In this document: positions 10,101-54,490 of the stretch, one piece after another | Layout of the letters: each line of letters starts with the position of its first letter | How positions within the stretch are numbered: the first letter of the stretch is position 1 | Source of the DNA: Ancylostoma caninum | Taxonomy: Eukaryota; Nematoda; Chromadorea; Rhabditida; Ancylostomatidae | Length of the DNA: 64,000 nucleotides | Assembly (NCBI GenBank): GCA_037903475.1 | Contig: JBAJFG010000041.1 | Location: 1,550,001-1,614,000 of the forward strand | Reading direction: 5' to 3' | The notes under the pieces: generated by a model | Database searches by the model: none | Told to the model about the DNA's origin: nothing | The model's input: the letters and a program-made list of their open reading frames with translations, nothing else | Made by a program: the position numbers and the translations under genes

Positions 10101-11005
10101 AGCGAACTCATATATGAATATAATATTAAATGTTTTCAAATTATACTGATGTTGATGATGTATACAACCGTTTTGTCCACTTTATCCACAATCTGATAGA
10201 GCGCTTCGTACCTTTAGTGCCTCCATCACAGCCCATCCATTCCACAGATATCCGGTTCACATCAAGAACCTTGTTAGCCAAAAGAAGAGATTATTCCTTG
10301 AATTATCAAACCCAATTCAATGTGCTACGTACCGAAATTTATGCCAAAAACTGAACTATCATTTGCGCCGATTTTTAAGCTATAAGGAACACAAGATGTC
10401 TCGAGTAAAAAATATGAAAATGCTATTTTGCTCCATTAAGCAACGGATTCGGTTGAAAGAGTGCACCTCAACGTTGCAAGACGAGAACGGTCATTGGTTT
10501 TCTACTGCTTCCGATAAAGCGAATGCCCTATCGCAATACTTTTCTAGTGTCTTCAACGTCGAGGGATCTTGCTGTCCGTTAGTTGATGTGAAGTCCCATT
10601 TGGATCTCCCTGATATAATGATAACATATGGTGATGTTCGAGATTTCCTAAAGAAGACAAAAGCTTCGTTTTCGGTCACCTCTGATGGAATACCTCCTTT
10701 CTTCTTCCATGAGTTCTCTGACTATTTGTACAAACCATTGACACACATTTTCAATATTTCTCTCCTCGAAGGTAAAGTTCCTTCCTTATGGAAATCGGCA
10801 ATGGTAACACCTATCCCCAAAACTGCATGCGCATCCTTCTTAACAGACTTCAGACCTATCAGCATACTCCCAACGCCATGTAAAATCATGGAAAAAATCT
10901 GGCAAAAATTATCCTGGAATGGACACAAAAAACTAATTGTATCCCAGAGGAGCAATTTGGCTTTCTCCCATGGTGCTCCACCCTCACTCAATTAATTCAG
11001 TGTTC
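10101..11005 (+). mobile_element. LINE 5' part in inverted orientation
   Basis: The plus strand 10130-10995 encodes the region before the RT and its beginning (VDDVYNRFVHFIHNLIERF, then GIPPFFFHEFSDYLYKPL and MVTPIPKTACASFLTDFRPI). Its last ~280 bp (about 10720-11000) repeat, in inverted orientation, the start of the minus-strand part (about 10100-9826). Frameshifts occur near 10354 and after 10900. Sequence homology ends at about 11005, where an unrelated dispersed repeat begins. Confidence 0.8.
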
Positions 11006-11007
11006 TC

Positions 11008-11265
11008 GTGCGTTAAGCCGTATGTATCTGAGCATCCATCATTGTTCAATGCGCACGCGCGCAGCTTTTGTAGCTTGGAGCGCGTTTTCCCACGGGTACC
11101 GTAATCCTCGGACGTTTTGTCCCATATCTAGCGATAGAGCTCATATCGAGGTCTCAAACTTGACATACCTGGTACACATATGGTTTGGACTCCAGAGAGC
11201 AGAAAACTTGGGTGGGCAAGATTTTGACCGGACTTTGCCTTTGAGGTGGATACGTGGGGATGCCT
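11008..11265 (+). repeat. dispersed repeat, copy 1 (second copy at 52030-52275)
   Basis: Shared blocks include GCGATAGAGCT, GGTCTCAAACTTGA, CCAGAGAGCA and CTTGGGTGGGCAAGATTTTG. About 250 bp of both copies can be aligned in the same orientation. No ends or coding capacity are recognised. Confidence 0.7.
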
Positions 11266-11936
11266 TTGAGGTGGATACGTGGGGAGTTTTTCAATCAGTT
11301 ATGTTAGCTGTTTGCCCAAAAACTTCTGAGCGCCCTTGCCGACCCAAATGCGCACATGTGTCTTTATCGGCGCCAGTAGTGGAACTACTCATGGCGACAA
11401 TAAAAATCCTGGAACGGCGCCACTTCGCATTGCGAAGAGAGCGCGAAATAATCCATGTTCGACTTTTGTGCGCTATGCGGTCACTGATGTGTCGCATTCC
11501 TGTCGCCACTGGATAGTGCCGGCCCGGGATCTTTACCGACGGCCTTGGTCAATTTCGTCGGTGGCAACGGTGCCCATTTTGGTGTGCACCAGTGCCCAAA
11601 GTTTCTGAATACAAACAAAAAAGCATGCCTTAAGAGAAGCAATATAAACACAAACCACCAACTGCTCGTGCGTCATAATCCAACAATGGAATAATCATAA
11701 TTCAACTGGATTGTACCAAATATGCATCACAAGTAACTTTATTCTTTGCATGTTTACAGGAAGAATGATTAAATTGCTACCTTGGCATTCGTTTCATTTG
11801 AAAATTGTATCTTCTTCTCTATTCAAAAAAACTTGTGACCATACCAATGCTCAAACCTCACCCGCACGAGGCGACAACCACCTTCATACGCAGTACCCTG
11901 ATGGTTTGGACTCGCTCACACGCGTCATGTCGACAA
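11266..11936. other. intergenic region before the retroelement
   Basis: Short open frames only; nothing recognised. A 20-bp imperfect duplication (TGCCTTTGAGGTGGATACGT) occurs at 11237 and 11260. Confidence 0.4.
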
Positions 11937-12526
11937 TGTCGGCTCATTTTTTAATTCCGTTTTCTTTATTAAGCCACTAATTCAAATATTTTCATGGTCG
12001 CCGTCAGGCGCTGAAGACTGAAGCGGCCACCGCACTTTCCCAGACAACATCGTTTTTATCGCGGCATTCTATCTCCGCGAGAAGCTGCGGCATTTACTAG
12101 GAACAGAACCATATGGCATCGATCAACGAGTACAGGCCGGGACAGTCTTCAAATCTCCTTTCACTTCACCCACTGCTCCAACCTTTACCTCTCTAGGTTT
12201 GTATCAAGTTTCAGGGAATTGTGGTTCTTGTATACTCATTCTCTGCACTTGACTCTCCCCTTTACCAATAACGAGTGACTCCCGTCTATTCTGTTTTTCG
12301 CTCTAATAGTTTCCCAAAACTTCAGAAAGAAGTCAAGGACTTTTGGTATTTATCACTGAACCACTCTCATCGTTTTTAGTAAGTAGCCTTCTCTTCATCT
12401 CAACTCTATAATCACTCACTTAACAACATAATTCACTTGACTCATCACTTAAAGTTGTTGTGCAATTATTTTTCTTGTTCACCTAGCTGTTAGTTCCTCT
12501 TAACCTCAGTTAGTGGTATCTCGTAT

Positions 12527-14706
12527 TTAACACATTGACGACAATTAACGTTTTCGCTGTGAGTGCCACGTGGGACCAAGACTAATTCTACCTTTATTTC
12601 TGAATTTGTCTTACCGGAACATAGTCACATGAGACGCAGATCACGAATATGACATACATTTTCTACCGTAACCCATATTTGTAGGGCTACGGTAGGTATA
12701 CTGTAGAAAACCAAATCTCTCAGAATTCTTTGAAATTTTGCACACGGGGATTATTTCGTGTGCAGACCACGAATGTGACATTCATTTCCAGCGCAGAGTG
12801 TGAGTGATGCAGCTGTTTTGCTTTTGAACGTCCTACACTGGATTTACAGTGACAATTTATTAAGGAAATTGACAGCGTGATTACATCCCACACCTTTTGT
12901 GTTCCTTCTGGAAGCACTCTATGCAGTAGTGTTTCTGACATCTATTACATCTGGTGTGCACTTTCCTAGCATGGATTTTGGCGTAATACGATCCTTCCTT
13001 CCTAGACAGTTTTTGATAACAGCCGGCACATCTTTTTCTTGACAAAGCCTTGCCGTCGCGCACTTCCTCGAGCAGATGTTTGGGAGCTAAAATGGGTTGT
13101 CGTTTGCTGTCCAACAGTGACTCAATTACCTCCATCTTGAACTCGTTAGACTTCATCTTCTGCACATTATCGTGGTACAACCTCCATGAGTTCACTAATG
13201 AGGTCTGAGTGAGCAGATGGAAGAACAATCGCAGGTACCATTTCGACGTCTTCCTTAAAAATGGCGTATAAGAGGCCATTTGATCAGATATATCTACAAA
13301 AAGCTTTGCTTTATTGTAGTCTTCCACGACTTTGGGCTTTCCTTGACCAGCTCTCGAGTCATCGTGCGTGGTTGACAGCATCAGAACGTCTCTTCTATCA
13401 CGCCATTTGAGCACCGTTACTCCTCGTCTGTTCTGTTGGGCAACCATGGCTCCTCGCGTCAGTTTCCTTGTGGTGACAACCTTCGGTAACCGCTTTCTGT
13501 TCTTCCCAACGGTTCCAATCAGATGAGTTTTCCTTTTCAGCAACTGCTCTGCAAGCGGTACACTTGTTTAATAGTTGTCAGTAAAAAGACGTCTGCCCTG
13601 ATCTAGCAGGCTATCCATTAGGTCTAGAACAACGGATTCAGCTATGCTCCCGGTTCTCGTAACGTCTTTACCAGCATAAACTCGGGTTTTGTAGGTGTAT
13701 CCTCCCCTGCAGCAGAGCTTGAAAAGCTTGATCCCATAGCGGTGCCTCTTATTTGGAATGTATTGTTTGAAAACAATGCGACCTCGAAAGGGAATTAGGG
13801 ACTCGTCTATACAGAGGTCCTTGCCGGGGTGATACACGCGCTGGCATGCTTCATTGAGGAGATCTAAATACGGTCTTATCTTGTAAAGTCTGTCCTTTCC
13901 ATCAAAGGAGGAATTGTCGTTGAGGTGGAGGTTTGCTAACAACTTTTCGGACCTATTTCTGGGCATCACTTTTGCACCTATTGGGTGGCCACCATAGACC
14001 GATCTGTTGCTCCAATAATCTCTCAGAGAGGGGAGGCGAATAATTCCCATTTGCAGACAAAGTCCAATGAATTTTCTTATCTCTACTTTGTCGGTATCCT
14101 CCCAACTTCTTGGGGTAATATCTGTTTATATGTGTGTACGTATGTTCCGGATAGAAATCGCAGAAGATTTATCGATCAAGACCAGACTTTGCAGACGTAT
14201 TTCCCGTAAGCCGGCGGATGTTTTGCTGCTTTTGTCTAAAACTATAGATTGGTTTATCGATTTATCGACTTTATTGAATTTTCAACATTTTTGCTCAAGG
14301 GTCGATGAGGACATGTCTAATGGGGCATCTCAATACCCTACGCGTTTTTCATTCGTTTTCCTACAGTATACCTACCGTAACCTGCGGAACAAGGGTTACG
14401 GTACAAAATGGTTATTATTTTCGTAATCAGCATGTAAAATAAGCTACCTGTGCAAAGTTTCAGCAGTTTCTGAAAGATTCGTTTTTCTACAGTATACCTA
14501 CCGTAACCTGCGGAACAAGGGCTACGGTACAAAACGGTGGTCATATTCAAGTTCATCACGTGAAATTACCCACCTACGCAAACTTTCACGGGATTCGGAT
14601 TTGGAGAACCCCATTTTTGACGTGGGACCCACCGGTGGGTCCCTTGGTCCCTGGTGGCCGCCAGAGTGGGACCCACCGGTGGGTCCCATTGTCGTCAACG
14701 TGTTAA
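12527..14706 (-). mobile_element. piggyBac family transposon with TTAA duplication
   Basis: The left end is TTAACACATTGACGACAAT and the right end (reverse complement) is TTAACACGTTGACGACAAT, 18 of 19 identical. TTAA lies at 12527-12530 and 14703-14706. The element between is 2172 bp. Near the right end is a duplicated palindrome built on ACCCACCGGTGGGT. The transposase is on the minus strand. The LTR sequence continues on both sides, so the insertion is younger than the LTR. Confidence 0.92.
12881..14125 (-). pseudogene. piggyBac transposase (one nonsense codon, N-terminus missing)
   Basis: The minus-strand frame is open from 14125 to 12881 apart from one TAA at 13568-13570. The order of motifs is that of the DDE_Tnp_1_7 family: KFIGLCLQMGIIRLPSLRDY, then DLCIDESLIPFRG (first catalytic Asp), RLFTDNY (second Asp, directly before the stop), then FVDISDQMASY (third Asp region). 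It ends in a cysteine-rich zinc domain (CAGC...CNRCQKHYCIECF). The stop replaces the residue after DNY and the same frame resumes at once with TSVPLAEQ, so it looks like a single point mutation. Upstream of 14126 a stop codon ends the frame and the usual N-terminal region is not visible; it may be in another exon or lost. Confidence 0.85.
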
Positions 14707-14723
14707 ACTAGAAACTAAATAAA

Positions 14724-14805
14724 GGTTTAATTACCCAAGTTTGAGGTAATCCATCGAAACCGCGTGGCCGTGAAATATCACGTTTAGGCGAGCATTGTAC
14801 CCTCA
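14724..14805 (+). ncRNA. SL1 RNA-like segment in the 5' LTR
   Basis: 14724-14745 is identical to the 22-nt nematode SL1 (begins GGTTTAATTACC, ends AAGTTTGAG). It is followed by GTAA, which keeps a 5' splice site, then ATCGAAAC and a small hairpin (CGTGA-AATA-TCACG) and GGCGAGCATTGTACC, which resembles the body of SL1 RNA. The similarity stops at the LTR end, before an Sm-site-like sequence. Identity of SL1 is from established knowledge; its function here is inferred. Confidence 0.8.
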
Positions 14806-14810
14806 CTTTG

Positions 14811-14820
14811 TGGTGCATTG
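14811..14820 (+). promoter_or_regulatory. putative primer binding site (tRNA-Gly)
   Basis: TGGTGCATTG lies 5 nt after the LTR end. It matches the reverse complement of the 3' end of a tRNA-Gly with CCA (10 nt). The match does not continue further, so the site is either short or decayed. BEL/Pao elements often use tRNA-Gly. Confidence 0.5.
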
Positions 14821-15617
14821 TCTACTCGGACTCAAGCCGGTTAATCAATTTTACATGACTATTCCTATTTTTTTACACGGAGTCTAAAGTTCGTACAAGT
14901 TCGTCACAACGAAAGTTTCGCACCAAAGTTTTTGAACCTCACTCATTCTGGTGTATTCTCTGCTACATTCCTCGCAAGTCCTTTCATCATTCTTGACGCA
15001 AGTCATCACTCACTCCTGATTCCAGCTATCAAGAGCAAATCTTCACCAGAAATTGACATCTCCTTCACTCTGGTGCAGTCTTTCACCCATTCACAGCTCA
15101 AGTTACAAAAAACAGCTGCACACCTGAATTTTGAACTCCACTGTTCAGGTGCACTTTGGGCTTCAAGTTTACCGAAACAACAACATTTTGCGGGACAGAT
15201 CTCGCCTGATCAAGTGCACATCTTCACTATTCTTGAAACAAGGTCACTGAGAACAACAGCATCCCTGAGATTCTGAACCTCACTCGTTTAACTCACTCTG
15301 CACACTTTCATCTGATCTTGTCTCAAGTTCATCAAGAGTAACAGCACACCTGAGACTTGACTACTCACTCGTCCAGGTGCATTCTCCCACTCAGTCTTAA
15401 TTCAAGTATATCGATAACAACGAAACACCAAATTCTTCATACCTCGCTTGTTTAGGGGTACATTTCATTGGCATACGTTTATTACGAGTCTACTGGCCAA
15501 AAATTAACTTGAATTTCACCAACACCATCGTCACAGCTGACTCCTCAAGTTAGTTCCATCCCCATTGATACGACTTTTTTCAAGTTAACAAAAAAATCAA
15601 AAATCATTTTGACTACC
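14821..15617 (+). other. retroelement leader with degenerate repeats
   Basis: This is the untranslated leader between the LTR and gag. It shows degenerate ~80-bp repeats with motifs such as CCTCACTC, GTTCAGGTGCA, ATCAAGAG and AACAGCACACCTGAGA (14930-15390). A pyrimidine tract ending TTTTTTCAAG (near 15582) could be a splice acceptor ahead of the gag ATG at 15618. Confidence 0.5.
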
Positions 15618-16543
15618 ATGTCAGTACAACTTATTACCCCGAAACGATTGTTAACTCACTACTCGAAAAAATTAGAGACAGCTTCAGTAGAAGGGGAAAC
15701 AACTTTTTCCGCTAAAGAAAGTCTTCACAGACTTAATGAGAGTATAGCCGCCACAGAAAAAATAGAGCAGCTACTTCAGGAATTTGCTTCTGGTTATGCA
15801 GAATTAAAAAATTCAAGCCAAAAAGATATAGAAGATTCTGACGAGTACTCAAAAAAGGCAGAAATTGCCATCACGACGGCCTTCGATTATTCATTATTGC
15901 TCAAAGCCTTTGAATCAAGTGATTTAAATCAAGTGATTGCGTGGGGCAATCACTTGATTTAAATCACTTGATTCAAAGGCTGGCGTACAGTCTGGCACGA
16001 TGCATACCGGACGAGTTAACGCCCGCATCCCAATTTCATGTGAAAAAACTTGAGCTGCCCACTCTCCCCGTACCCACATTTCGGGTAAATCTCTGGGGAT
16101 GGGATAATTTCTGAGAATTATGTAATGAAAATGTTCACACTCAAAATATACCCGACTTATGCAAGTTCAATTACCTGCTCAACGCCCTTAAAGGAGAGGC
16201 ATTAGAATTCGTGAAGAAATTCCAAGTAACCAAGGACAATTATTTAAAAGCCGTAGAGTCTCTTCAACACAAGTGTGGAAACTCAGAGCAACTTATCGCT
16301 CATCTCATCGATAGGCTCGATAAATGCAAGTTACGTTCAACATCCACACGTGATCAACGCGCATTATTTGAGCAACTTCAAGTCATTATAGCGCAACTGA
16401 AGCAGAAAGGAGAAGAAGTGGACAGCCAATGGTTGTACAGGCAACTACTGTCCAAATTCCCAGAACCAGTACAACGCAAGGTGCTCAAGAAAAAAACAAG
16501 GACTCTCCCCAGAAAATCCGTTCACTGTAGAAGTACTCCTTAA
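15618..16543 (+). pseudogene. BEL/Pao gag remnant (DUF1759-like)
   Basis: The first frame (15618-15962, MSVQLITPKRLL...) is an N-terminal coiled-coil-type gag region. It is broken by a perfect hairpin (15905-15981). The core with ELPTLPVPTF and LNALKGEALEF follows in other frames, and 16211-16543 encodes a helical segment typical of Pao-type gag (DUF1759). At least two frameshifts and a stop near 16110 break it. Confidence 0.7.
15905..15981. repeat. perfect 36-bp inverted repeat inside gag
   Basis: 15905-15940 is the exact reverse complement of 15946-15981, with a 5-nt loop (GTGGG). It shifts the gag frame. The right arm looks like an inverted duplication of the left. Confidence 0.9.
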
Positions 16544-16616: not shown

Positions 16617-16770
16617 GCAAGTCAACGCCAGGACAAGAGACAAGGATGGATATAGCGCATCCTTCACTATTACCTGAAGGTACTGCAGAGGACACCACAA
16701 AGCAATCGAGTGTACTCGATACAAATCTTCACAAGAAAGGTCCCAGCATCTACGTGACCACAAGTGGACA
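16617..16770 (+). pseudogene. gag zinc-knuckle remnant
   Basis: In one frame this encodes CRGHHKAIECTRY followed by SSQERSQHLRDHK, the Cys/His finger usually found between the gag core and the protease in nematode Pao-type elements. The frame is interrupted by stops on both sides. Confidence 0.55.
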
Positions 16771-17222
16771 CAACTGTGAAAAACACGCAACCTAAGAAGG
16801 TCACGCCAACCATCCTGACGAAGAAACCCCTGACAAATCAGCACACACCGAAGAACACCCGACCCACGAAAGTAACAAAAGTAAATCTACTCGGTGAAGA
16901 CTCCACCATACCGGACGAAAACACCACCCTGGAACTTCATTCCCCAAACAACCAGGAAAACTGCTCCCGCACATTCCTTCCAACAGGGGAGTTAACAGTA
17001 GTTGACCCAAAAACGAACCAGGCAATGAAGTTATCGGCTCTGTTCGACACAGGGGCCAAAATTTCACTCATCGACACTACACTTGCAGATGAGTTAGAAC
17101 TTCCGACACTTGAAACAACAACGCTTCGTTTACACACCTTTGGATCAGGTAGAATTCGCGCAAGCAAGTGCAGCATGGGATTCAGAGGGACAATCATTTT
17201 CTCTCCAACTATTTACCCATGA
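16764..17222 (+). pseudogene. retropepsin-like protease remnant (DUF1758-like)
   Basis: The open frame of 152 codons has a Lys/Thr/Pro-rich N-terminal half followed by LSALFDTGAKISLI, the D-T-G active-site motif of Pao-type aspartic proteases, and then LADELELPTLET. It ends at a stop codon at 17220-17222; the sequence after it is in other frames. Confidence 0.75.
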
Positions 17223-18006: not shown

Positions 18007-18905
18007 ATGAAATTTCTGATCCCCAAATGCTACAACTGCATACGTCGAAAAAATCGCACAAGGAGATACTCGGCCGACCTAATCGAACTTCTCGCAGTTG
18101 CCGTAACAGTTCTAGCAATATCAACCTCTATTCAAGGATGTCAGCAGATTAATTTGTCCTCTCACAAGTCTACCATTTGTACCAATTCTGAAGGAACTGA
18201 AGTCTGAAATCCATATCTCAGAAATCCTAGAAATCAATCCATTCAAAAGGAAAGCGTGCTTTAAATTACACCGCAATGGAACCACAGTCCATGAGCTACG
18301 CGCATCATGGATAGCACTGGTACTTTTATGTGTGACGAAAACTAAAACTTTTACTAGAGATACTACCTATCAAGTTGTAGATAGTAAAAGGTGTCCCCAC
18401 ACTGGCTCTTGACTGGCTCTTGTGTAGGAGAAAAATGCGCAGCCCCACAAGCAAAATTCCAGAATTGGACAGGGGAAATCATTACCCGGGCATCACATCT
18501 TGCTCGGAATCATGCGGTGGCGTTGGATGTGATTGCTTCTATTGGAGTTCAGGATGCCTTTTCTATCGCATCTATGCAACACCTACATCATCCCAAGTCT
18601 ACGGAATATTTCACTGTAATCGTTGGACAGAAGCAGCTAAGATTGAATTCACTCAAGTGGACACTGCACAAGGAAGAAAACACTCCTTTACCGCTCACAT
18701 GATCCCAAACATTCCGATCAACTGGAAGTCCTTCACATTCACTTTAAGTTCAACCACGGTTCCACCCAATCCATTTCTCAACCCAGCCTTCATCACGGAT
18801 GGCAGGGCGCAGCACTATGTGGTCATTGACCACCAGGACCTAGTAACGTCCTGCAGATTCAGGGGGCTTAGCACCAAATTCCGGGGCGTAGCCAACCGCT
18901 GACCG
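18007..18905 (+). pseudogene. env-like glycoprotein, first part (Phlebovirus-type fusion protein family)
   Basis: This part starts with a basic segment and a hydrophobic stretch (about codons 22-44 of the frame at 18007), followed by Cys-rich segments spread over several frames. The frame 18420-18902 has a dense cysteine cluster (C-x3-C-G-G-V-G-C-x-C type) like that of the class II fusion glycoproteins that nematode BEL/Pao elements acquired from phlebovirus-like viruses. Stop codons and an 11-bp duplication near 18405 break it. It is a dead copy and is annotated only as a remnant. Confidence 0.6.
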
Positions 18906-19620
18906 TCTACTGATGTTAGACACAAGCAGATTTCAGAGAGACACATCTAGAGGATCATCAAAATCGTAGCTGAAGAACACTGTCGTTCAACCATTTACTC
19001 CATCCTATCCTGCACTCTGGTGCGCTCAGGTGATAATCAGGTGTTGCTCAATCTGTAGGAGAGATGTCGTGTTGGAATTTCGACTGTAGGTGCGTACTAT
19101 GCCAATAAGTGTCCCCCAAAATGGCATCCTTCGTTTTTAGGAAACCGTCTTCGTTTTTGAAAAAGAAACCCGTCATTAATGGTCAAAAAGTGGTTTTTGA
19201 CCATCTTTTTACCATTAACGACGGTTTTTTTTTTTTGAGAAACGAAGACGGTTTCTCAAAAACGAACGGTGCTTCTTCGGGGGAGAGTTGATACCACCTA
19301 GGCGCATTTTTCGGAGTTGAAAGCGTATCGGAACCTTTCTTCAAAAGAGAGAAATTTACTGAGTCCTATTAGAAGTTTCAGCGAGTTCTGGCGGGATCAA
19401 ACAGTTCCGTGCTGAGGTCGGTTTTTCGAAGATTTAAGCTTGGATTTGAGATTAATTATTCTGTCTTCGCTAAATGGTACGCATTTCTTGCTGAAACATC
19501 ACTCGTCATCTTCAATAACAGCTATTTAAGTCACTTTTTTAGTGCTACCTTCTTTTCCCGAAAGAACCCTAATATGTAGACCCTTAGTAGCCCATTTCGA
19601 AATCCGACTGGACTTAGTTC
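18906..19620 (+). other. insertion splitting the env-like gene
   Basis: The cysteine-rich coding similarity stops near 18905 and resumes near 19625. The intervening sequence holds a foldback element (19112-19283) and unrecognised AT-rich sequence. Its outer borders are not exact. Confidence 0.5.
19112..19283. mobile_element. foldback MITE
   Basis: The left arm 19112-19192 and right arm 19195-19283 are nearly complementary over about 80 bp (shared core AAACCGTCTTCGTTT and CATTAA-GGT segments), with almost no loop. The outer ends are CCCCCAAAATGG and, in reverse complement, CCCCCGAAGAAG. Confidence 0.75.
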
Positions 19621-19624
19621 TAGC

Positions 19625-20444
19625 CAAGCGACACTGACCACCTAGTGCTGTGCCCTGACGGATGGAAACAACACAGCGCTTTGGGATACACACATCTCAC
19701 CACCCCAACAGTGTCCAAATAGGACTGCAGCAGAAGTCCTAGAGTGCACTATGTGGAAGATTGCAAGTGCTATCCTGCAGAAAATCAAGCTGTCAATGTA
19801 GAGACCTCCGAATTTCCTCTGTATTCAACGACCTGAACAAACGACTTCCAACGGTGTTTCCATTCCTCACGTTCAAGCTGGATCCAGGACGACAGGTACA
19901 AGCTATCGTACCAAGCATGACGACAGCGGAAATTATGATCACCCTTCAAGACAACGTTAAGACCAACGTGACAGTGGATGATGCGATCTGCTCCGTTGAC
20001 AACGCAGTACTAACAGGGTGATATAATTGTGCAAAAGGAGCAATCACTCAAATCAAGTGCAAATCTTCTCAACGGACGCAAGCTGAAATAACTTGCACTT
20101 TCACTGTTGACTGCGATCCAAAAGGAGTCCAATCTAACCTTCATTTCAGCTTTGGTAACGCATGCATACATCTAAGTTGTACAGTAACCTGTGGGACAGT
20201 TATCACAACGTTCAAATTGGGAGGAGTACTGAAGTATACCCAACCGGCTCACCTTATACTACGACAATGGCTACAAGGAAATTAACATACGTCGCCCGAA
20301 TTCCAGTGGCCAGATTTATGGCATATAGCTGAAGTTTTCATGCAGTGGCATAAAACAGTGGCGTTAGCTGCACTCATCCTCATTATCTTCCTAGGACTTA
20401 CCTACCTCTACCTACCACTCTGCGGTCTGAAATGCATGAAATGA
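19625..20444 (+). pseudogene. env-like glycoprotein, second part with membrane anchor
   Basis: Continues the Cys-rich ectodomain (frame 19761-20021 and onwards past a stop at about 20020). It ends with a hydrophobic segment (about 20350-20412) and a short cytoplasmic tail rich in Cys and Lys, ending in TGA at 20442-20444. The layout of ectodomain, single membrane span and short tail fits the C-terminal part of a class II fusion glycoprotein. Several stops and shifts break it. Confidence 0.6.
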
Positions 20445-20550: not shown

Positions 20551-20797
20551 TATAGGGTAATTTATACTGGATGCGTGCGTCTGACGCGTGCGCGTGCGTC
20601 TATGTGATGAAGAATAGGTCCCAGTCTCATAGCAGTCGCGTCGCAGTCGCAGCTCAGACGCACGCGTTTGCGGCCGCGCGTTCTTTTCATTGAAGATGTA
20701 CATGCCGTGTTGACCGGTCTTCATGGAAAATCCCGTGCAAATGGATGCGTGCGAAAATGCGCTACTGACGCCCGCAGCTAGTATAAATCACCTTTAT
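20551..20797. mobile_element. 250-bp TA-MITE, copy 1
   Basis: The 5' end is TATAGGGTAATTTATAC and the 3' end is GTATAAATCACC, the latter decayed. The interior (GATGCGTGCG, CAGACGCACGCGTTT, GTTCTTTTCATTGA, GACCGGTCTTCATGGAAAAT) matches the copies at 39147-39394 and 54237-54490. Confidence 0.8.
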
Positions 20798-20912: not shown

Positions 20913-20922
20913 CTCATTTCAG
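20913..20922 (+). promoter_or_regulatory. splice acceptor directly before the extra ORF
   Basis: CTCATTTCAG ends 1 nt before the ATG at 20924. An acceptor this close to a start codon is typical of a nematode SL-addition site, or of an acceptor used by the SL1-like donor in the element's own 5' LTR. Confidence 0.6.
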
Positions 20923-20923
20923 C

Positions 20924-22312
20924 ATGGATGCAAGTGACATTAACGGCAATACCAGCATTCTATTCAAACTCCTCAAGGAAAAGAATCAATCCGAGTACAT
21001 CATAGAACGAGATCTTCATGTTGTCCTAGAAGCAATTCACAAGCACAAGGACATAGCCACAACTCTCCGAGTTCAATGGGAACACCTGAGGAACGACAAG
21101 GCCTTCTTCCTCTCGAACATTAGCGAGCAGTTGCTCCTCGTCAGTCGAACACTCCGAACAACAAGTATCACTGAGGAACGCATCCTTCACTTAACAACAC
21201 GCTACGTAATGATGGACAGCCTGCACGAAGCACGCGTGCAACCAGGATATTTATCAAGTTTCCAACGTGAAGACTGGTTATACTATGATAAGCCATACGC
21301 AGTACAACTAGAGATAGTCCTCGCCCTGGTTGATGTATGCCTGAACATCCTCGAGACCACCATCAAAGAACTGGAAACAATGCTTGGACAAATGAAACAA
21401 AAATTCTACCCCCAACAAGCAACTAAAGTCGAATTCCACGTATGCCCTCAAGACCAAATGCCCGCGCTCCCACAAGTTCGTGTACTACAAAATCAAGTAC
21501 TGGAGCAAGCAGAAGAATTTAAGTCGCTCAAACGAACGATCAGCATGATGCAGAAGGACAAGTCGGGAACCACCAGAGACAGCTCAGACGACGAACCAAC
21601 TGCTCCAACAGAAAAAGAAGAGCCGACGGGTACCCAGCATCAGTCACGCAGAGCCAGCAGTGAAAGATCAAGCATACTTCGAACGAATGGTGAAAGAAGT
21701 AACCCAACCTCACTTACCACCACTCGCCGACAGTGATGACGGAGGTCTATCGCTCCCTGGGGGGCGCTCTACCAGCAGTACCAGCAGCCGGAACAAGTCC
21801 CCCCAGCCGCACAAACCAGCACCAGAACAGTTTCAACAAGTTCATCAAGTCTGGAGCCACGTCGACGAAATGATCTACCTACAGGGTCAAGTTGCGCAAT
21901 TACAGCAAGTACTGCGTGTATCTCCATACAGAAACCTCGGCGAAACGTCGGCTGGCGATGACCCGGTAGTGGTATGCGCGTTCTGTGACGCGGAGGCACG
22001 TCACTGTTCTGACTCATGCCCGGAAATCCAGAGCGGAGATGATGGATTCGCAATCATCGTCATCAGAGGACTGCGCAAGTGGTGCCTCGCACAACATCGA
22101 GGTCAACTCAAATTCCACACAAAGGAGTGCTGGTATTGCGTCAAGTTACGCGGCACTGTCGCCGAAGACATGATTCCAGTCGAAGACGGTCACCACCGCG
22201 CCGTCTGCAGCGTTCCAGATTCGAGTCATCTGGTGTACCAACGAATTGACCTTTTGCGTGACGAGATAAACGATCTTCGAGACCGTCGAGAAAAACAAGT
22301 TGCGGGTGGAAA
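20924..22312 (+). CDS. extra ORF between env and 3' LTR: helical protein with Cys cluster
   Basis: From the ATG at 20924 (MDASDINGNTSILFK) the frame runs to 21736. A shift in 21640-21660 moves to the frame that continues with VKDQAYFERMVKEVTQPHLP to the LTR edge; the raw frame then reads into the LTR and stops at 22397. The first 250 residues are rich in helix and heptad-like segments, then an acidic Ser/Thr linker, a second helical segment (VHQVWSHVDEMIYLQGQVAQ) and a zinc-finger-like cluster (CAFCDAEARHCSDSC...C...CWYC). The cluster resembles nematode gag zinc fingers, so it may be a second gag-like or accessory protein. Upstream in-frame codons 20723-20923 are from a MITE and are not used here. 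The frameshift may be a mutation or, less likely, programmed. Confidence 0.6.
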
Positions 22313-22599
22313 TGTCGCTTTAAAAGTTTCTCAAAACTTCAGAAATAATTCAAGGATTTTTGATAATTTATCACTGAACCACTCTCATCGTTTTTAGCAA
22401 GTGGCCTTCTTTTCATCTCTACTCAAGTTATCACTCACTTAACCACATAATTCACTTGACTCATCACTTAAAGTTGTTGTGTAATTATTTTCCTTGTTCA
22501 CCTAGCTGTTAGTTTCGCTTAACCCCAGTTAATGGTATCTCGTACTTAAAGGCAGCAGGAGGTGAAATTCTCGACTCTGAGCTGAGCCGCGGGTGGCAA
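22313..22599 (+). repeat. truncated LTR copy plus half foldback
   Basis: After the purine stretch GGGTGGAAA (22304-22312) an LTR start (TGTCG) joins directly to an inner LTR segment. 22318-22549 matches 22989-23221, and 22550-22597 is the left half of the foldback at 23222-23703. The period between the two copies is 671 bp. Confidence 0.75.
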
Positions 22600-23221
22600 T
22601 GTCGACTCAATTTTTCAATTCCGTTTTCTTCATTAAGCCACTAACTCAAATATTTTAATGGTCTCCGTCAGGCACTGAGGACTGAAGCGGCAATCGCACT
22701 TTCCCAGACAACATCGTGTTTATCGCGGCATTCCATCTCTGCGAGAAGCTGCGACATTTGCTAGGAACAGAAATGTATAAAGAGCACTGTGCTCCATATG
22801 GCATCGATCAACGAGTACAGGTTGGGACAGTCTTCAAATCTCCTTTCACTTCACCCACTGCTCCAATCTTTACTTCTCTAGGTTTGTATCACGTTTCAGG
22901 GAATTGTGGTTCTTGTATACTCATTCTCTGCTCTTGACTCTTCCTTCCCTTTACCAATAACAAGTGATTCCCGTCTATTCTGTTTTTCGCTTTAATAGTT
23001 TCTCAAAACTTCAGAAATAATTCAAGGATTTTTGATAATTTATCACTGAACCACTCTCATCGTTTTCAGCAAGTGGCCTTCTTTTCATCTCTACTCAAGT
23101 TATCACTCACTTAACCACATAATTCACTTGACTCATCACTTAAAGTTGTTGTGTAATTATTTTTCTTGTTCACCTAGCCGTTAGTTTCACTTAACCCCAG
23201 TTAATGGTATCTCGTACTTAA

Positions 23222-23703
23222 AGGCAGCAGGAGCTAAAATTCTCGACTCTGAGCTGAGCCGCGGGTGTGAAGTACGGACTCAGCACATCATAAATGTGAA
23301 ACGAACACAGACAATGATGGCTCACCTGCAGAGAAAATGGAACATTCGTCCAGAACACGCCTGGCGGTGTTCGTGCGCGGACGAGTTTTTCCCTGCGCGA
23401 AAGCCATTGCGGCGCGTGGTTTTGGCCGAGTCCCGCCATGAAACCCTGTGAATTGAATGCATTTCGTTTTCCCTTTGCGCCAAACCACGCAATGGCTTTT
23501 GCGCTGTGTAAAACTCGTCCGCGCGCGAACACAGCCAGGCGTGTTCGCGACGAATGTTCCATTTTCTCTACAGGTAAGCCATCATTGTCTGTGTTCGTTT
23601 CACATTTATGATGTGCTAAGTCTGTACTTCATCACCCACAGCTCAGCTCGGAATCGAGGATTTCAGCTCCTGCTGCCTTTTGCCTTTTCAGCCCCTGCTG
23701 CCT
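23222..23703. mobile_element. 480-bp foldback element in the 3' LTR
   Basis: The ends are AGGCAGCAGGAGCTAAAATT and, in reverse complement, AGGCAGCAGGAGCTGAAATC. The arms of about 220 bp are nearly complementary along the whole element (for example 23275-23345 with 23560-23640). It is flanked by TTAA on the left (23218-23221) and TTTA on the right. It occupies the same LTR position that the piggyBac element hit in the other LTR. Confidence 0.8.
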
Positions 23704-23717
23704 TTTAGATAAATGAA

Positions 23718-23799
23718 GGTTTAATTACCCAAGTTTGAGGTAATCTATCGAAACCACGTGGCCATGAAATATCACGTTTTGGCGAGCACTGTACCCCCA
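23718..23799 (+). ncRNA. SL1 RNA-like segment in the 3' LTR
   Basis: 23718-23739 is again an exact SL1 22-mer, followed by GTAA and the same SL-RNA-like body. Over the next 60 nt the two LTRs differ at 6 positions, whereas the 22-mers are identical. Confidence 0.8.
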
Positions 23800-25150
23800 C
23801 TTTACGTCATACCACCTATGCCGTGGCCCTCTGCCTGCGAGTCCGCATATTCCTTCGACAACGTCGTTCTCATTCTCGATCAGTTCTGTGATGTGGCGCG
23901 TTTTAGCAGTTTTGAAACACTAAAGTTTCTTATGTATTTGCTGTTTCGTTTTGGGCGAAATCAGTGGTATGTCATTAGAGGAAGTCTCCATTGATTTTTA
24001 ACGTTTTAGCCGTCTTACTTTCGTCACAGATCTGATATGTTTTTGCGGTCTTTTTCTTTTTAGAAAAACTGCCCGTATATGTCGGGTTTACGGCTCAATT
24101 CTCATGATGACATGACGTCATTCTGTTCAGGAAAGCTCTTCATTGGAACGCGTGAACAACTATTGATAACCCTCGGCTGCGGACACATGCATGTCTTCCT
24201 ACAGGCTATCACCGCAACTACCACTTATTTTGTATCTTCTTAACGTTCTGCCTTCTCAAATTCCTTCAACAAGTTTAGTGTCCGTGCAGAAATCATGGAG
24301 CTGATGGCCCAAGTCGATGGAGTGCGGGCTGCGACCGACTCGAGCCCTATAGCTTATAATTCCTTCATCGAACTGATCCCGGTCCGGCTCTATTCAGTTG
24401 GCGCGAATGGCCTGTCCGAAGTTTTAATCCATTTTTGTTTTCGTAATAACTTTATTCAGGTTATTTGGTGAAATATATATAACAGTCGTTGCTAGGGCCA
24501 TATGCTATGGGCCATTTTTGAGGCCTTCCGATTCTCTTTTCCCAGAGTAACAGGTTTGAGGAGTCAAAGAACATGGCAACTCCTAATTTGACACACCAGA
24601 ATTTACAAATTGTTTGAACGATAAGGTAACAATTGGGCAGATCAAATAATACTTGGAGTGGGCGTGGCCTGGTGAGAGAGTAGGGCTAGCGTGATAATAG
24701 CGGTTTCCTAGTCCCGATTGATGGAATAGGTGGGCTAGTGAGGGATTTCCCGTCTTGGCCATTTTTCTTCGACAGCATTCCAAAATGTCAATGGACCGAT
24801 CCTACTCTGATGGTAGTCATGATAGTCCGGAAAATACCTGAAAGTAATGTCATCTCAAACGACAACATTCTCTTTATTTCGCCTTGTCAAATTGGGTCAT
24901 TGGTTGCTCCCGGAAGTTCATATCTCCAGATTCGAGACGAGTGGAACAGCAGAGCTATGCAGAATGTTGGGCAATACTCTCCTTGATCTAGTAGTGATGC
25001 TAACCTTAATGCTCATCAAGATGCTGCTCAGCAGGACGGAAGATAGAAGTTGTGGGAAGTACCATTACAAATTTGGAGCACTGCATGAGCAGAAATTCAT
25101 CGTGGTCTTTATATAACAGTAGCTTATTAGCTCATGAATTATACTCTGAT
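23800..25150. other. intergenic region after the retroelement
   Basis: Only short frames without recognised domains (for example 23758-23994 and 24738-24986). No clear repeat ends. Confidence 0.35.
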
Positions 25151-37801: not shown

Positions 37802-40800
37802 TCAGGACTTACTTCTCAATGGCATGGTGCATACTCCATTTACAATGGAATTGAATATATTAACGGCCTTCATGGAAGATGACAACTCAAAGTCTTCAGC
37901 TTCGTTGATGGTGTAGGTCACCTAGAATGCAAGTTTTTTTTTGAGAGAGAGAGAGAGGTGAAGAAGGTTTGAGAGGTTCTCAGCCAGAGGACCGGTGGAG
38001 ACAGGACTCACTCCAAGACTTTGCGGTGCAACATCGTTAGTTGCACTGAGAAATACATAAGCTGGCGTTCCTGGGCAGTCGTCGCACTTCCACCCGTTTT
38101 GGCTGTCTCTCTCGAATTGCTGCCAGACGTTTTGATACGCTCTGAGATAGCTCAGCATTGGACTAGCGGTTGTAGTAATGTTAGTTGCACTTACGCAAAA
38201 TTGTCAGAAACGATCATGATAACGTTGGGAGCGAGGATTCTGTCGGCGTCATCTGAATAGCTTCCGCAGCCGAACTGTGAGCGAATGAGGTTGAATAGGC
38301 TAAATATAAAGTAACGTAAAAGCAGTATACAGCACAGCTCCGTTAACATAATCAAATCACTTGACATTGTGCTCTATGTGCAGTGCCGGTCAATCATTCA
38401 TGCATTCTTGCATCACAGAATACCCTCCGCCAGGTCTGCCGTGCTGCACCTCTTATGCGCAGCGGCAGACTGGCTGGACACTGTTCTTGTCGGACAGTGT
38501 TAGTGTTTTCCACCATGTTTCTGGTGTCTTTGTCTTCGAGATGCTTGGATGAAAACAAATGCAAAACATCTACGCCGGTAACGCCCGACAACCACACCAT
38601 CCATCTGGTCCGCCGCATCGCGCAGGTGGTGCGGCGCTGAAGACCGGACGTGCGCCATTCTGTGATAAAAGAGTGATCGACCGCGCCGCACCCCAACTTC
38701 TGGTATGGTTTTGACACGTCTTGACGCGCACTACAAGGTCCTAATGTGTTTGTACCAATATGAATCTTCACATAGACGAAGGTGGAACGTGTCACGAGTG
38801 TCACGACGGGTTGCACGAGATACGTTCCCCAAACACGACCAGAGCTCGCCGCGCACCGCGAGTCCTCTCGTTCTCTGCGTCTCCGATTACATACGGGCCC
38901 CTGTAATGCCTCGACTCACCACCCCCTGTCTATGTTCTAACCCCTCGCAGCCGCCGCAACACAGATGGGGAACGTATCTCATGTAATCGTCACGATGTGC
39001 CAGAAAAGCGGCGGAACTTCGTTGCGGTGCCAATACGCCGCGGTGTTATTGCGTCGCGGCTGCGAAGCGAAGCCTACAAATTCGCTGCGGGTATACGAGA
39101 ATGTAGGTGAGCGGTATGATGCCTATTCTAGCTCAGTATTCCAGCGATAAGGGCAATTTATACTGAATGCATGCGACTGACGCGCGTGCATCTATATCAT
39201 GAAGAAAAGGGCTAAGTCGCATCGCAGTCGCAGCTCAGACGCACGCGTTTACGGCCTCGCGGCGGCCGCGAGTTCTTTTCATTGAGGATGTACATGCCGC
39301 GTTGACCGGTCTTCATGGAAAATCTCACGCGAATGGATGCGTGCGACTGATGCGCGACTGACGCACACAGCTATGTGGTATAAATTGCCCTATAAACTTC
39401 GGATTCTTTTTTTAGGAAAAGGGTATTAAAACCCGAGGATATGAACTCACCCATTGATATCCTGAGGTGTTACCGCTGGCACACCTGAAAAAACATATCC
39501 TCCCATGTGTATATCACAGTATTCGAGTTCAAACGGACGTATTGGTGTCTCAAGAGATCTTTACCTGCGAGTTCCAGGAACTCTGCCTTTTTCTGTGACT
39601 TTGACGTCGTCGCAGCGATCGTCGTAGGGCTGGTGGTAGTGACCACAGTAGTAGGTGTGGTTGTGGTTGTTGGCGCTGCCGTCGTGGTGATACCGTTTTG
39701 CCAGTTTGTAAGGTTATTGAAGCCATCGTTCATGCCTGAAAAAATATAGTAATTGACGAAAACATCGCCATGGGACTCTCTCCCTGAAATGAACTGAGGA
39801 TCGGCTCTAACCCTTCATTTCTTGGTTCTATTTAATTCATGGGTTAAGCTAGTGAGAGTTCAAAGATGATGGTAAATAGGGTGGGTGGCCTGCTACACGG
39901 CCGTGGAAAATCGGACCGATGGGTATCAAAATTGAAATCGATGTCCACTGAGCGATGGCGGCGCAGAGGGGCAGCGAAGGAGAAGTGCAACCGCTTATTT
40001 TTACTGCTTATTACTAAAAAAACCAAGAGTAGGTGAACTACACTGACACAAAGAAGTAAGGTCTTCGTCGCCGTACTGGCGATTCTCCGGGAGAACCTAA
40101 TTTCTGGCCATGCAACCTGTATGTGGGAAAGGGAACGAAACGAGCAAATTGGCTGCATTCTTACGAGTTTTTTTATATTCCGTTCAATATAACACCTTCG
40201 CTCAACATCAATAATTCAATCACTGAACTTTCTTTCCGACCTGCGTTTAAAATATCTATTGGAATATCTGAATTAAAGAGTATATGCGTATCAGGGTTTT
40301 TCCAACCTATCTGAAATAAATAACACCTTTAAATGCACACTACTGGATAGAAACCTACTTTGATGAGAAGACAGCGATGCGAGAATCGTCGGCTGCCTTC
40401 CACCTCCAAAGCCATACATTGAAATGTGAGCTGAAATCGGAGCGTTGTTCAGGCGTTATCCAGCTCGAGCTATGAACGTTTAAAATCAAAAAAAGTCGAG
40501 TTCTTACCAGTGTAGATAGTGTTAAATTGACCAAGGAGGGATCGAACGTAGTCAGTTATCTAGAAAAGATGGACTCCTCTTAGAACAGTGCGCTGCTAAA
40601 ATCAAAAGCTGAAGGAAAGTCCTCACATTAGCGGTCAACGGCCCATTCACGTCGAAAGCTACACCAAAGTCGACGAAGTTCAAGTCGCATCGAGCTAAAA
40701 TGCAGCTGTCCCTCTAAGGCCATCCAGGGAACAGAGTATAAACGTACCTTCACTCGGTAGCTTACAGTCCAATGCGTTCACTTTCTGGTAGTAATCCGTG

Positions 40801-54236: not shown

Positions 54237-54490
54237 TAAGGGCAATTTACACAGGATGCGTGCGACTGACGCGCGTGCGTCTATATGAGGAAGAATAGGG
54301 CCCAGTCGCATCACAGTCGCATCGCAGTCGCAGCCCAGACGCACGCGTTTACGACCACGCGGCAGTCGCGCGTTCTTTTCATTGAGGATCTACATGCCAT
54401 GATGGCCGGTCTTCATGGAAAATCCCTTGCAAATGAATGCGTGCGACTGATGCACGACTGACGCACGCAGCTGGTATAAATTACCCTATA
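54237..54490. mobile_element. 250-bp TA-MITE, copy 3
   Basis: Ends AGGGCAATTTACAC and, in reverse complement, AGGGTAATTTATAC, flanked by TA. The interior matches copies 1 and 2. Confidence 0.85.

What the first reader, a model, noticed from the sequence alone, without database searches (positions are those of the whole stretch)
14724..14805. The retroelement LTR contains an exact SL1 spliced leader with its splice donor
In both LTRs (14724-14745 and 23718-23739) the nematode SL1 22-mer is intact, followed by GTAA and a body resembling SL1 RNA (ATCGAAAC, small hairpin, GGCGAGC), and the similarity ends at the LTR border. If transcription starts at the SL1 G, the genomic RNA begins with SL1 and can splice this leader to acceptors in front of internal ORFs. 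Its mRNAs would then look like host trans-spliced mRNAs and share their cap and translation advantages. The 22-mer shows no differences between the LTRs while the next 60 nt show six.
Basis: partly seen in the sequence, partly recalled or inferred. Interest (0 to 1): 0.92.

Follow-up and report, generated by a model that had tools for sequence, protein, structure and literature searches.

The report
Retroelement LTRs carry host spliced leader
In what is likely a hookworm genome, the terminal repeats of a decayed retrovirus-like element, and about a dozen other families of LTR-like sequence, contain the worm's own 22-letter spliced leader, usually followed by a splice-donor GT, so their RNA is predicted to begin with that leader and to be spliced into messages that would look like the worm's own.

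Summary
The SL1 22-mer is exact in both LTRs. The real LTR is about 706 nt, not 94: a piggyBac element sits in the 5' LTR and a foldback element in the 3' LTR, at the same TTAA just upstream of SL1. A 5-nt target duplication (CGTCA) and a tRNA-Gly-like primer site give the same LTR edge.

The "SL1 RNA-like body" is not one: candidate host SL1 RNA genes share only leader and GT. The motifs seen, CCGCGTGGC and GGCGAGC, are complements of the tRNA-Gly-GCC anticodon arm.

Genome-wide there are 388 exact SL1 sites, 0 for the reversed pattern. Of 86 inspected, 27 have the anticodon complement downstream, and GT follows SL1 in 22 of those 27. A search blind to SL1 found it in 9 of 30 loci; other families look like TATA-type LTRs. 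Between families leader and GT persist while flanks are near random. The third ORF starts at TTTCAG-N-ATG in 5 of 8 copies checked.

Best reading: SL1 is the LTR's own 5' exon and probably its R region. No RNA data were available.

The parts
11923..11927 (.). left target-site duplication CGTCA
   Evidence: identical to 23805-23809; only match in 60 offsets tried
11928..12530 (+). 5' LTR, first part (U3), starts TGTCGACAATGTCGG
   Evidence: 11934-12530 is 88% identical to 22597-23221; same start as the young C198 LTR
12527..14707 (-). piggyBac transposon inserted in the 5' LTR at TTAA (TTAA-CACATTGACG...CGTCAACGTG-TTAA), transposase on the minus strand 12884-14050 in two frames
   Evidence: terminal repeats; Pfam DDE_Tnp_1_7 E 1.6e-19 and 6.4e-42
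14708..14810 (+). 5' LTR, last part: end of U3, SL1, U5
14718..14723 (+). AATAAA abutting SL1 (predicted poly(A) signal); the only AATAAA in the insert-free 5' LTR
   Evidence: such hexamers lie within 8 nt before SL1 in 9 of 15 families, shuffles at most 2 of 15
14724..14745 (+). SL1 22-mer, LTR position 620-641 (insert-free); predicted R region / first exon
14746..14747 (+). GT splice donor directly after SL1 (predicted)
   Evidence: sequence; GT after SL1 in 22 of 27 LTR-type sites
14760..14768 (+). CCGCGTGGC, complement of tRNA-Gly-GCC anticodon loop and 3' stem (U5)
14787..14793 (+). GGCGAGC, complement of the 5' strand of the tRNA-Gly-GCC anticodon stem; the spacer to the previous motif folds as a hairpin (-4.4 kcal/mol)
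14811..14820 (+). primer-binding site, TGGTGCATTG (9 of 10 to the complement of the tRNA-Gly-GCC 3' end)
   Evidence: relatives L025 and L128 match further
15609..16540 (+). decayed gag (DUF1759 in 16115-16540)
   Evidence: Pfam E 7.2e-21
16758..17219 (+). aspartic protease
   Evidence: Pfam Asp_protease_2 E 4e-06
18116..20018 (+). decayed envelope, Gc-like fusion glycoprotein
   Evidence: Pfam Phlebovirus_G2 E 8e-14, 3.9e-41, 0.0016 in three pieces
20917..20922 (+). splice acceptor TTTCAG (predicted), 1 nt before the third ORF's ATG
20924..22312 (+). third ORF (frameshifted here), zinc-knuckle-like C-terminus; 74% and 73% identical to two Ancylostoma hypothetical proteins
22311..23804 (+). 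3' LTR, rearranged (281-nt partial duplication) and split by a foldback insertion at ~23222-23708
23718..23739 (+). SL1 22-mer of the 3' LTR, preceded by AATGAA and followed by GT
23805..23809 (.). right target-site duplication CGTCA

Best explanation
SL1 with its GT is a built-in part of the LTR of this BEL/Pao-type element, and SL1 sits likewise in about a dozen other LTR-like families of the genome, where it likely serves as the start of the genomic RNA (the R region) and as a 5' exon that would be cis-spliced to the element's third ORF. Shown: SL1 is in both LTRs; a target duplication and a tRNA-Gly-type primer site give the LTR borders; leader and GT persist across families whose flanks no longer align; AATAAA-like hexamers lie just before SL1 in 9 of 15 families; the third ORF begins 1 nt after TTTCAG in 5 of 8 copies checked. 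Inferred: transcription starts at the SL1 G; polyadenylation falls in or just after SL1, so that R is about SL1; the donor at 14746 joins the acceptor at 20922. The product would be SL1-C-ATG, the same as a host trans-spliced mRNA, made without host trans-splicing. The rest of U5 is not SL RNA: it predicts extra pairing to the anticodon arm of the tRNA-Gly-GCC primer.
For: SL1 exact in both LTRs of one insertion with TSD CGTCA, which implies that the parent RNA had it. A young relative (C198, LTRs 815/816 identical, TSD CAATC) has SL1 at the same place, 99 nt from the LTR end and the PBS. 388 exact SL1 sites against 0 reversed controls in the genome. 27 of 86 inspected SL1 sites have CCGCGTGG within 130 nt, holding 27 of the 28 CCGCGTGG in 90 kb; GT follows SL1 in 22 of 27. 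In the sample chosen by PBS and anticodon motif alone, 9 of 30 loci have SL1 (8 exact, 1 with one mismatch), GT in 8 of 9; between those 5 families identity is 0.98 in SL1 against 0.29 before and 0.35 after. By family GT in 14 of 15, or 12 of 13 without the two families that came from a search for SL1+GTAA. AATAAA, TATAAA, GATAAA or AGTAAA in the last 8 nt before SL1 in 9 of 15 families (AATAAA alone 4 of 15), 500 shuffles at most 2. TTTCAG 1 nt before the third ORF's ATG in the window, C198, C86, C4 and C131, the last two only about 47% identical to the reference protein in its first 104 residues.
Against: No RNA evidence. No shared promoter motif upstream of SL1 beyond chance. One family (L025) has GA, not GT, after SL1; 5 of 27 LTR-type sites lack the GT. 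21 of 30 PBS-selected loci lack an intact SL1, and several of these look like ordinary TATA/AATAAA LTRs. Third-ORF relatives also occur beside such LTRs, and the 3 of 8 copies without TTTCAG-N-ATG (C94, C80, C599) have TTTTTTAG-like sites, so SL1 is not needed for third-ORF expression as such. C86's LTR was not looked at. In the window alone SL1 conservation is not significant. The families may share ancestry and are not independent counts; the families were found mostly through exact SL1.
Confidence: 0.6

Rival explanations
1. Host trans-splicing put SL1 on the element's RNA and the spliced RNA was reverse-transcribed into the LTRs, as proposed for Brugia PAO elements; SL1 is then a by-product or a host-supplied R region that is renewed each cycle.
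For: PMC7181701 (section 7 read) reports 60 of 120 non-gene SL1 sequences within 1 kb of PAO elements and gives this reading. Renewal would explain perfect 22-mers. TE transcripts can be trans-spliced: Cer1 (PMC3315495, passages) and Hydra (PMC12220107, passages).
Against: A spliced leader joined to an acceptor leaves no donor, yet GT directly follows SL1 in 22 of 27 sites and in 8 of 9 SL1-bearing loci of the SL1-blind sample.
Confidence: 0.15
2. An SL1 RNA gene or transcript was captured once by an ancestral LTR (template switch); the 22-mer and GT remain for some other reason (RNA structure, promoter or initiator function), without use as a splice donor.
For: Leader plus GT is what an SL RNA offers, and the candidate host genes have GTACTT or GTATTT after the leader. 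SL1 with GTAAT can form the 6-bp leader stem of the Rfam model.
Against: Nothing recognisable of the SL RNA body or a proper Sm site is left. What is kept is the exon and GT, the part a splice donor needs; the bases after GT differ between families.
Confidence: 0.2
3. SL1 is a passive hitch-hiker in one dead element and has no role.
For: The window copy is dead: frames are broken and no RT or integrase domain was matched. The within-window test of constraint is not significant.
Against: About 15 LTR-like families carry it ahead of the same U5 motif; one copy's LTRs differ at 1 of 816 sites.
Confidence: 0.05

Closest known systems
Nematode BEL/Pao (Belpaoviridae) elements with phlebovirus-like Env, e.g. 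Atlas virus of Ancylostoma ceylanicum (PMC9094657, passages read)
   Same: DUF1759 gag and aspartic protease (family traits recalled), Phlebovirus_G2-type envelope, LTR pair, hookworm relatives
   Different: Atlas is described with 271-nt LTRs and a single Gag-Pol-Env frame; a term search of its main text found neither 'SL1' nor 'splice'. Here the LTR is ~706 nt with SL1 and a GT, there is a third ORF, and no RT or integrase was found
SL1-flanked PAO elements of Brugia malayi (PMC7181701, section 7 read)
   Same: SL1 22-mers on one strand at both ends of Pao-type elements
   Different: There explained as host trans-splicing products near the elements; here SL1 is placed inside the LTR ahead of U5 and PBS, with a GT kept across families
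Cer1 of C. elegans (PMC3315495, passages read)
   Same: LTR element whose mRNAs are spliced and can carry SL1
   Different: Cer1 receives SL1 from the host at an internal acceptor; its 8-kb RNA was not trans-spliced at that site
LTR elements with small-RNA-derived LTR sequence: Cassandra, Helenus, Ajax (PMC10886601, abstract and passages read)
   Same: A small-RNA-derived sequence inside the LTR
   Different: Those carry tRNA or 5S rRNA sequence, proposed as Pol III promoters; here only the spliced exon of SL1 RNA plus GT
HIV-1 A-rich loop to tRNA-Lys3 anticodon contact (PMC7793103, passages read)
   Same: Extra complementarity of the RNA near the PBS to the anticodon region of the primer tRNA
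   Different: Here tRNA-Gly-GCC, 9 plus about 7 nt, often split by a hairpin, in many LTR families; unproven as an interaction

Membership tests
BEL/Pao (Belpaoviridae) | DUF1759-type gag | tested here: met
   E 7.2e-21
BEL/Pao (Belpaoviridae) | aspartic protease | tested here: met
   Asp_protease_2 E 4e-06; DUF1758 only 0.082
BEL/Pao (Belpaoviridae) | BEL-type reverse transcriptase, RNase H, integrase | tested here: not met
   no such Pfam match in the 17 plus-strand element segments scanned; the copy seems internally deleted between ~17888 and ~18000 (inference), so it cannot be placed by RT
BEL/Pao (Belpaoviridae) | phlebovirus-like Gc envelope of nematode members | tested here: met
   Phlebovirus_G2 E 3.9e-41; 14 protein relatives, 11 from named strongylids, 1 Steinernema, 2 unnamed
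BEL/Pao (Belpaoviridae) | LTR pair with short (5-nt) TSD | tested here: met
   CGTCA; relative C198 CAATC
SL1 RNA gene | SL1 leader and GT donor | tested here: met
SL1 RNA gene | SL RNA body and Sm site | tested here: not met
   candidate host genes have AAATTTTG(G); LTR body at shuffle level
SL1 RNA gene | SL RNA gene promoter (PSE) | not tested
   only a general k-mer scan upstream of SL1, nothing above shuffles
tRNA-Gly-primed LTR element | PBS complementary to the tRNA 3' end | tested here: inconclusive
   window 9 of 10 nt; relatives L025 and L128 continue TGGTGCATCGGCCGGGAA
Retroelement with SL1 as first exon | transcript starts at SL1 and splices from it | not testable with these tools
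   no RNA reads available

The most novel reading that the evidence does not exclude
The host spliced leader is the R region of a whole class of nematode LTR retroelements. Their RNAs begin and end in SL1, first-strand transfer jumps SL1 to SL1, and the same 22 nt act as a cis-spliced first exon, so that element mRNAs cannot be told by sequence from host trans-spliced mRNAs, and host SL1 mRNAs could serve as strand-transfer partners or be swept into the element's cycle.
Probability: 0.35. Interest if true: 0.92.

Novelty: new variant of a known kind. Interest (0 to 1): 0.8.

Why it matters
SL trans-splicing marks a large share of nematode mRNAs. Retroelements that encode the same leader as their own exon would pass as host messages, and SL1 on a read would no longer prove trans-splicing. 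That bears on SL-based operon and gene annotation. It also gives the SL1 sequences near Pao elements in Brugia a testable mechanism and hints that the association spans distant nematode clades.

Tried and rejected
Captured SL RNA body: first compared with a recalled C. elegans SL1 RNA, and GTAATC seemed to match a C. elegans hook printed in PMC7986045 (passages); dropped once candidate SL1 RNA genes of this genome (GTACTT/GTATTT, Sm site) were found. A 94-nt LTR: rejected. Constraint from the two LTRs alone: not significant. Common U3 promoter motif: none above shuffles. Conserved RNA fold of the 86 nt: z -0.90 and +0.15, no support. Acceptors 15583 and 18003: weak. SL1 in viral contigs and genome contigs: none. 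Third-ORF and envelope relatives in viral contigs: none confirmed. SL1 sites that are not LTR-type by the CCGCGTGG rule (59 of 86: other repeats, scattered single sites, and a few that look LTR-like) were set aside before the LTR counts; 36 of those 59 also have GT after SL1. Loci L001-L008, duplicates of later ones, were left out. In one search there were 63 sites in 26 clusters, 19 with SL1; I merged these by eye to 15 families (L015 and L086 into L019, L024 into L025, the window into L085/L128); two of the 15 (L138, L139) came from the SL1+GTAA search and are biased for GT. Window copy 2 is not because its motif reads CCACGTGGC.

Full report
Observation. The SL1 22-mer is exact at 14724-14745 and 23718-23739 and nowhere else in the window within 3 mismatches; 100 shuffles give none. 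The contiguous repeat is 94 nt with 7 differences.

What the repeat is. The 94 nt looked too short for an LTR. Comparing 11001-14900 with 22001-24000 showed that sequence upstream of each copy is also repeated: 11934-12530 and 22597-23221 align at 88%. In the 5' LTR the two parts are split by a piggyBac element flanked by TTAA, with its transposase on the minus strand. In the 3' LTR they are split by a foldback element at the same TTAA (its right flank reads TTTA), and the 3' LTR also carries a 281-nt partial duplication. Without the insertion the 5' LTR is 706 nt, with SL1 at 620-641. It begins TGTCGACAATGTCGG right after CGTCA, and the 3' LTR ends right before another CGTCA, the only such match in 60 offsets. 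The next base after the 5' LTR starts TGGTGCATTG. So a target duplication and a primer site give the same LTR edge. Because LTRs are copied from one RNA, SL1 was most likely already in the parent element.

The element. It has DUF1759 gag, an aspartic protease and a Phlebovirus_G2 envelope in broken frames; no RT or integrase domain was matched in the 17 element segments scanned. The 14 envelope relatives are 11 from named strongylids (hookworms among them), one Steinernema and two unnamed; the one gag relative is from Ancylostoma duodenale. A third ORF at 20924-22312 is 74% and 73% identical to two Ancylostoma proteins. The C-terminus of the Ancylostoma protein (DVDNVDLIS) fits translation of the LTR's first bases (VDNV in the 5' LTR), as expected if the ORF runs into the 3' LTR; this is inference from protein. 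The genome is 348 Mb; that it is a hookworm is inferred from these relatives.

The genome test. After ten busy replies the window's own genome could be searched. It holds 388 exact SL1 sites and none of the reversed control. Some of these are SL1 RNA genes. 100 places were listed; I fetched 80 stretches holding 86 SL1 sites. 27 of 86 have CCGCGTGG within 130 nt downstream, and these hold 27 of the 28 CCGCGTGG in the 90 kb; GT directly follows SL1 in 22 of 27. The other 59 are mostly other repeats or scattered sites and are not explained here; 36 of them also have GT after SL1.

A search blind to SL1. I searched CCGCGTGG N20-50 TGGTGCATC: 38 sites, 1 in the control. Of the 30 loci given, 9 have SL1 with at most one mismatch 16-36 nt upstream of the motif, 1 has a half-lost SL1 (7 mismatches), and 20 have none within 500 nt. 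Several loci without SL1 show TATATAAGG or CTATAAAAGG and a later AATAAA. So SL1 is a feature of some LTR families, not of all: 5 of 12 in this sample by the clusters.

Constraint. Among the 5 SL1 families of the blind sample, mean identity is 0.98 in SL1, 0.29 in the 22 nt before it and 0.35 in the 22 nt after it. Over 15 families (found mostly through exact SL1, so SL1 itself is not a test there) the two bases after SL1 are GT in 14, or in 12 of 13 without the two families from the SL1+GTAA search, while positions 3 to 24 have 0.27 identity. AATAAA-like hexamers lie in the last 8 nt before SL1 in 9 of 15 families, AATAAA itself in 4; 500 shuffles reach at most 2. No further upstream motif exceeds shuffles. 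Within the window alone SL1 against the rest of the LTR is not significant.

A young relative. On C198 two LTRs of 816 bp differ at one site, are flanked by CAATC, start TGTCGACAATGTCGA, end CACTTTA and run into TGGTGCATCGGCCGGGAAACG; SL1 is 99 nt from the LTR end. C70 has LTRs of about 552 bp with TSD AATAG (or ATAGT, shifted by one). For C75 three overlapping 5-nt matches exist. C330 and C277 show LTR pairs without a TSD in the offsets tried, and for the remaining two of the 7 pairs compared (C4, C482) the borders could not be fixed.

What the 'body' is. Candidate SL1 RNA genes lie in arrays (C299 with a period of about 1056 nt, among others) and score 42-49 bits against Rfam SL1 in the genome search, below its cut-off of 75. 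In the two loci read (L172, L173) they continue GTATTT or GTACTT and carry AAATTTTG(G). That they are the worm's working SL1 genes is inferred. The LTR sequence after SL1 matches them no better than shuffles do. Instead it contains CCGCGTGGC and GGCGAGC, which are the complements of GCCACGCGG and GCTCGCC in the genome's tRNA-Gly-GCC anticodon arm (55 pattern sites). In several families a hairpin of unrelated sequence lies between the two. I read this as extra primer pairing, like the HIV-1 A-rich loop contact (PMC7793103, passages). The families were chosen by CCGCGTGG, so the first match is by construction; the second is not: GGCGAGC stands in 8 of the 26 clusters and a shorter form in 2 more.

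Splicing. The third ORF starts 1 nt after TTTCAG in the window, C198 and C86 (one lineage; C86's LTR was not looked at) and in C4 and C131 (another lineage, about 47% identical to the Ancylostoma protein over its first 104 residues). Three further copies (C94, C80, C599) have TTTTTTAG-like sites near the start instead, so the count is 5 of 8. Splicing from the SL1 donor to this site would give SL1-N-ATG. Host trans-splicing to the same site would give the same RNA, so mature mRNA cannot tell them apart.

Known work. PMC7181701 (section 7 read) reports SL1 near PAO elements in Brugia and explains it by trans-splicing before integration. The GT kept here argues for an LTR-encoded exon instead. 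In ten literature searches (one search listed nothing) I saw no paper describing SL1 with a donor inside an LTR; most listings were seen only as titles and abstract starts, and most papers of subscription journals are not held.

Limits. No RNA data; start site, poly(A) site and donor use are inferred. Families are not independent. Only 100 of 388 SL1 sites were listed. Whether each LTR family belongs to BEL/Pao was not tested beyond the shared tRNA-Gly primer site, and LTR pairs were compared for 7 elements besides the window's.

Noticed in passing
window 14760-14793; L010, L128, L078, L041, L096, L105: U5 of many LTR families carries a split complement of the tRNA-Gly-GCC anticodon arm (CCGCGTGGC, then often a hairpin, then GGCGAGC), also in families without SL1: a possible extended primer contact.
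   Followed up: partly
L054 and L081, SL1 at 801 and tRNA-Gly complement at 833-906: SL1, 10 nt, then the full complement of a tRNA-Gly-GCC including CCA (ARAGORN), in two places with the same 40 nt upstream: possibly a fossil of reverse transcription that copied the whole primer.
   Followed up: no
window 12527-14707 and 23222-23708: Two different transposons, a piggyBac and a foldback, inserted at the same TTAA of the 5' and 3' LTR, just upstream of SL1.
   Followed up: partly
window 20924-22312; 96 matches in the genome: A third ORF with a zinc-knuckle-like C-terminus lies between envelope and 3' LTR; relatives occur beside both SL1 and non-SL1 LTRs, and no Pfam family matches it above its cut-off.
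   Followed up: partly
L016, L017, L033, L034, L042 and others: A second class of SL1 sites: inverted arrays with SL1 followed by GTACT in AATGCATTGC-rich repeats; origin unclear.
   Followed up: no
L023, L035, L036, L057, L077: A third class: SL1 followed by GTACCTACATACACG in a dispersed repeat.
   Followed up: no
window 14812-15464: The 5' leader after the primer site is a series of degenerate repeats with GGTGCATT-like motifs (7 with up to 2 mismatches, shuffles mean 2.3, maximum 6).
   Followed up: partly
window 20576-20780, 39168-39372, 54257-54472: A ~200-nt dispersed repeat occurs three times in the window, once just upstream of the third ORF.
   Followed up: no
G000 C34:452806-461791: Tandem array of tRNA-Gly-GCC genes with a ~242-nt period.
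   Followed up: no
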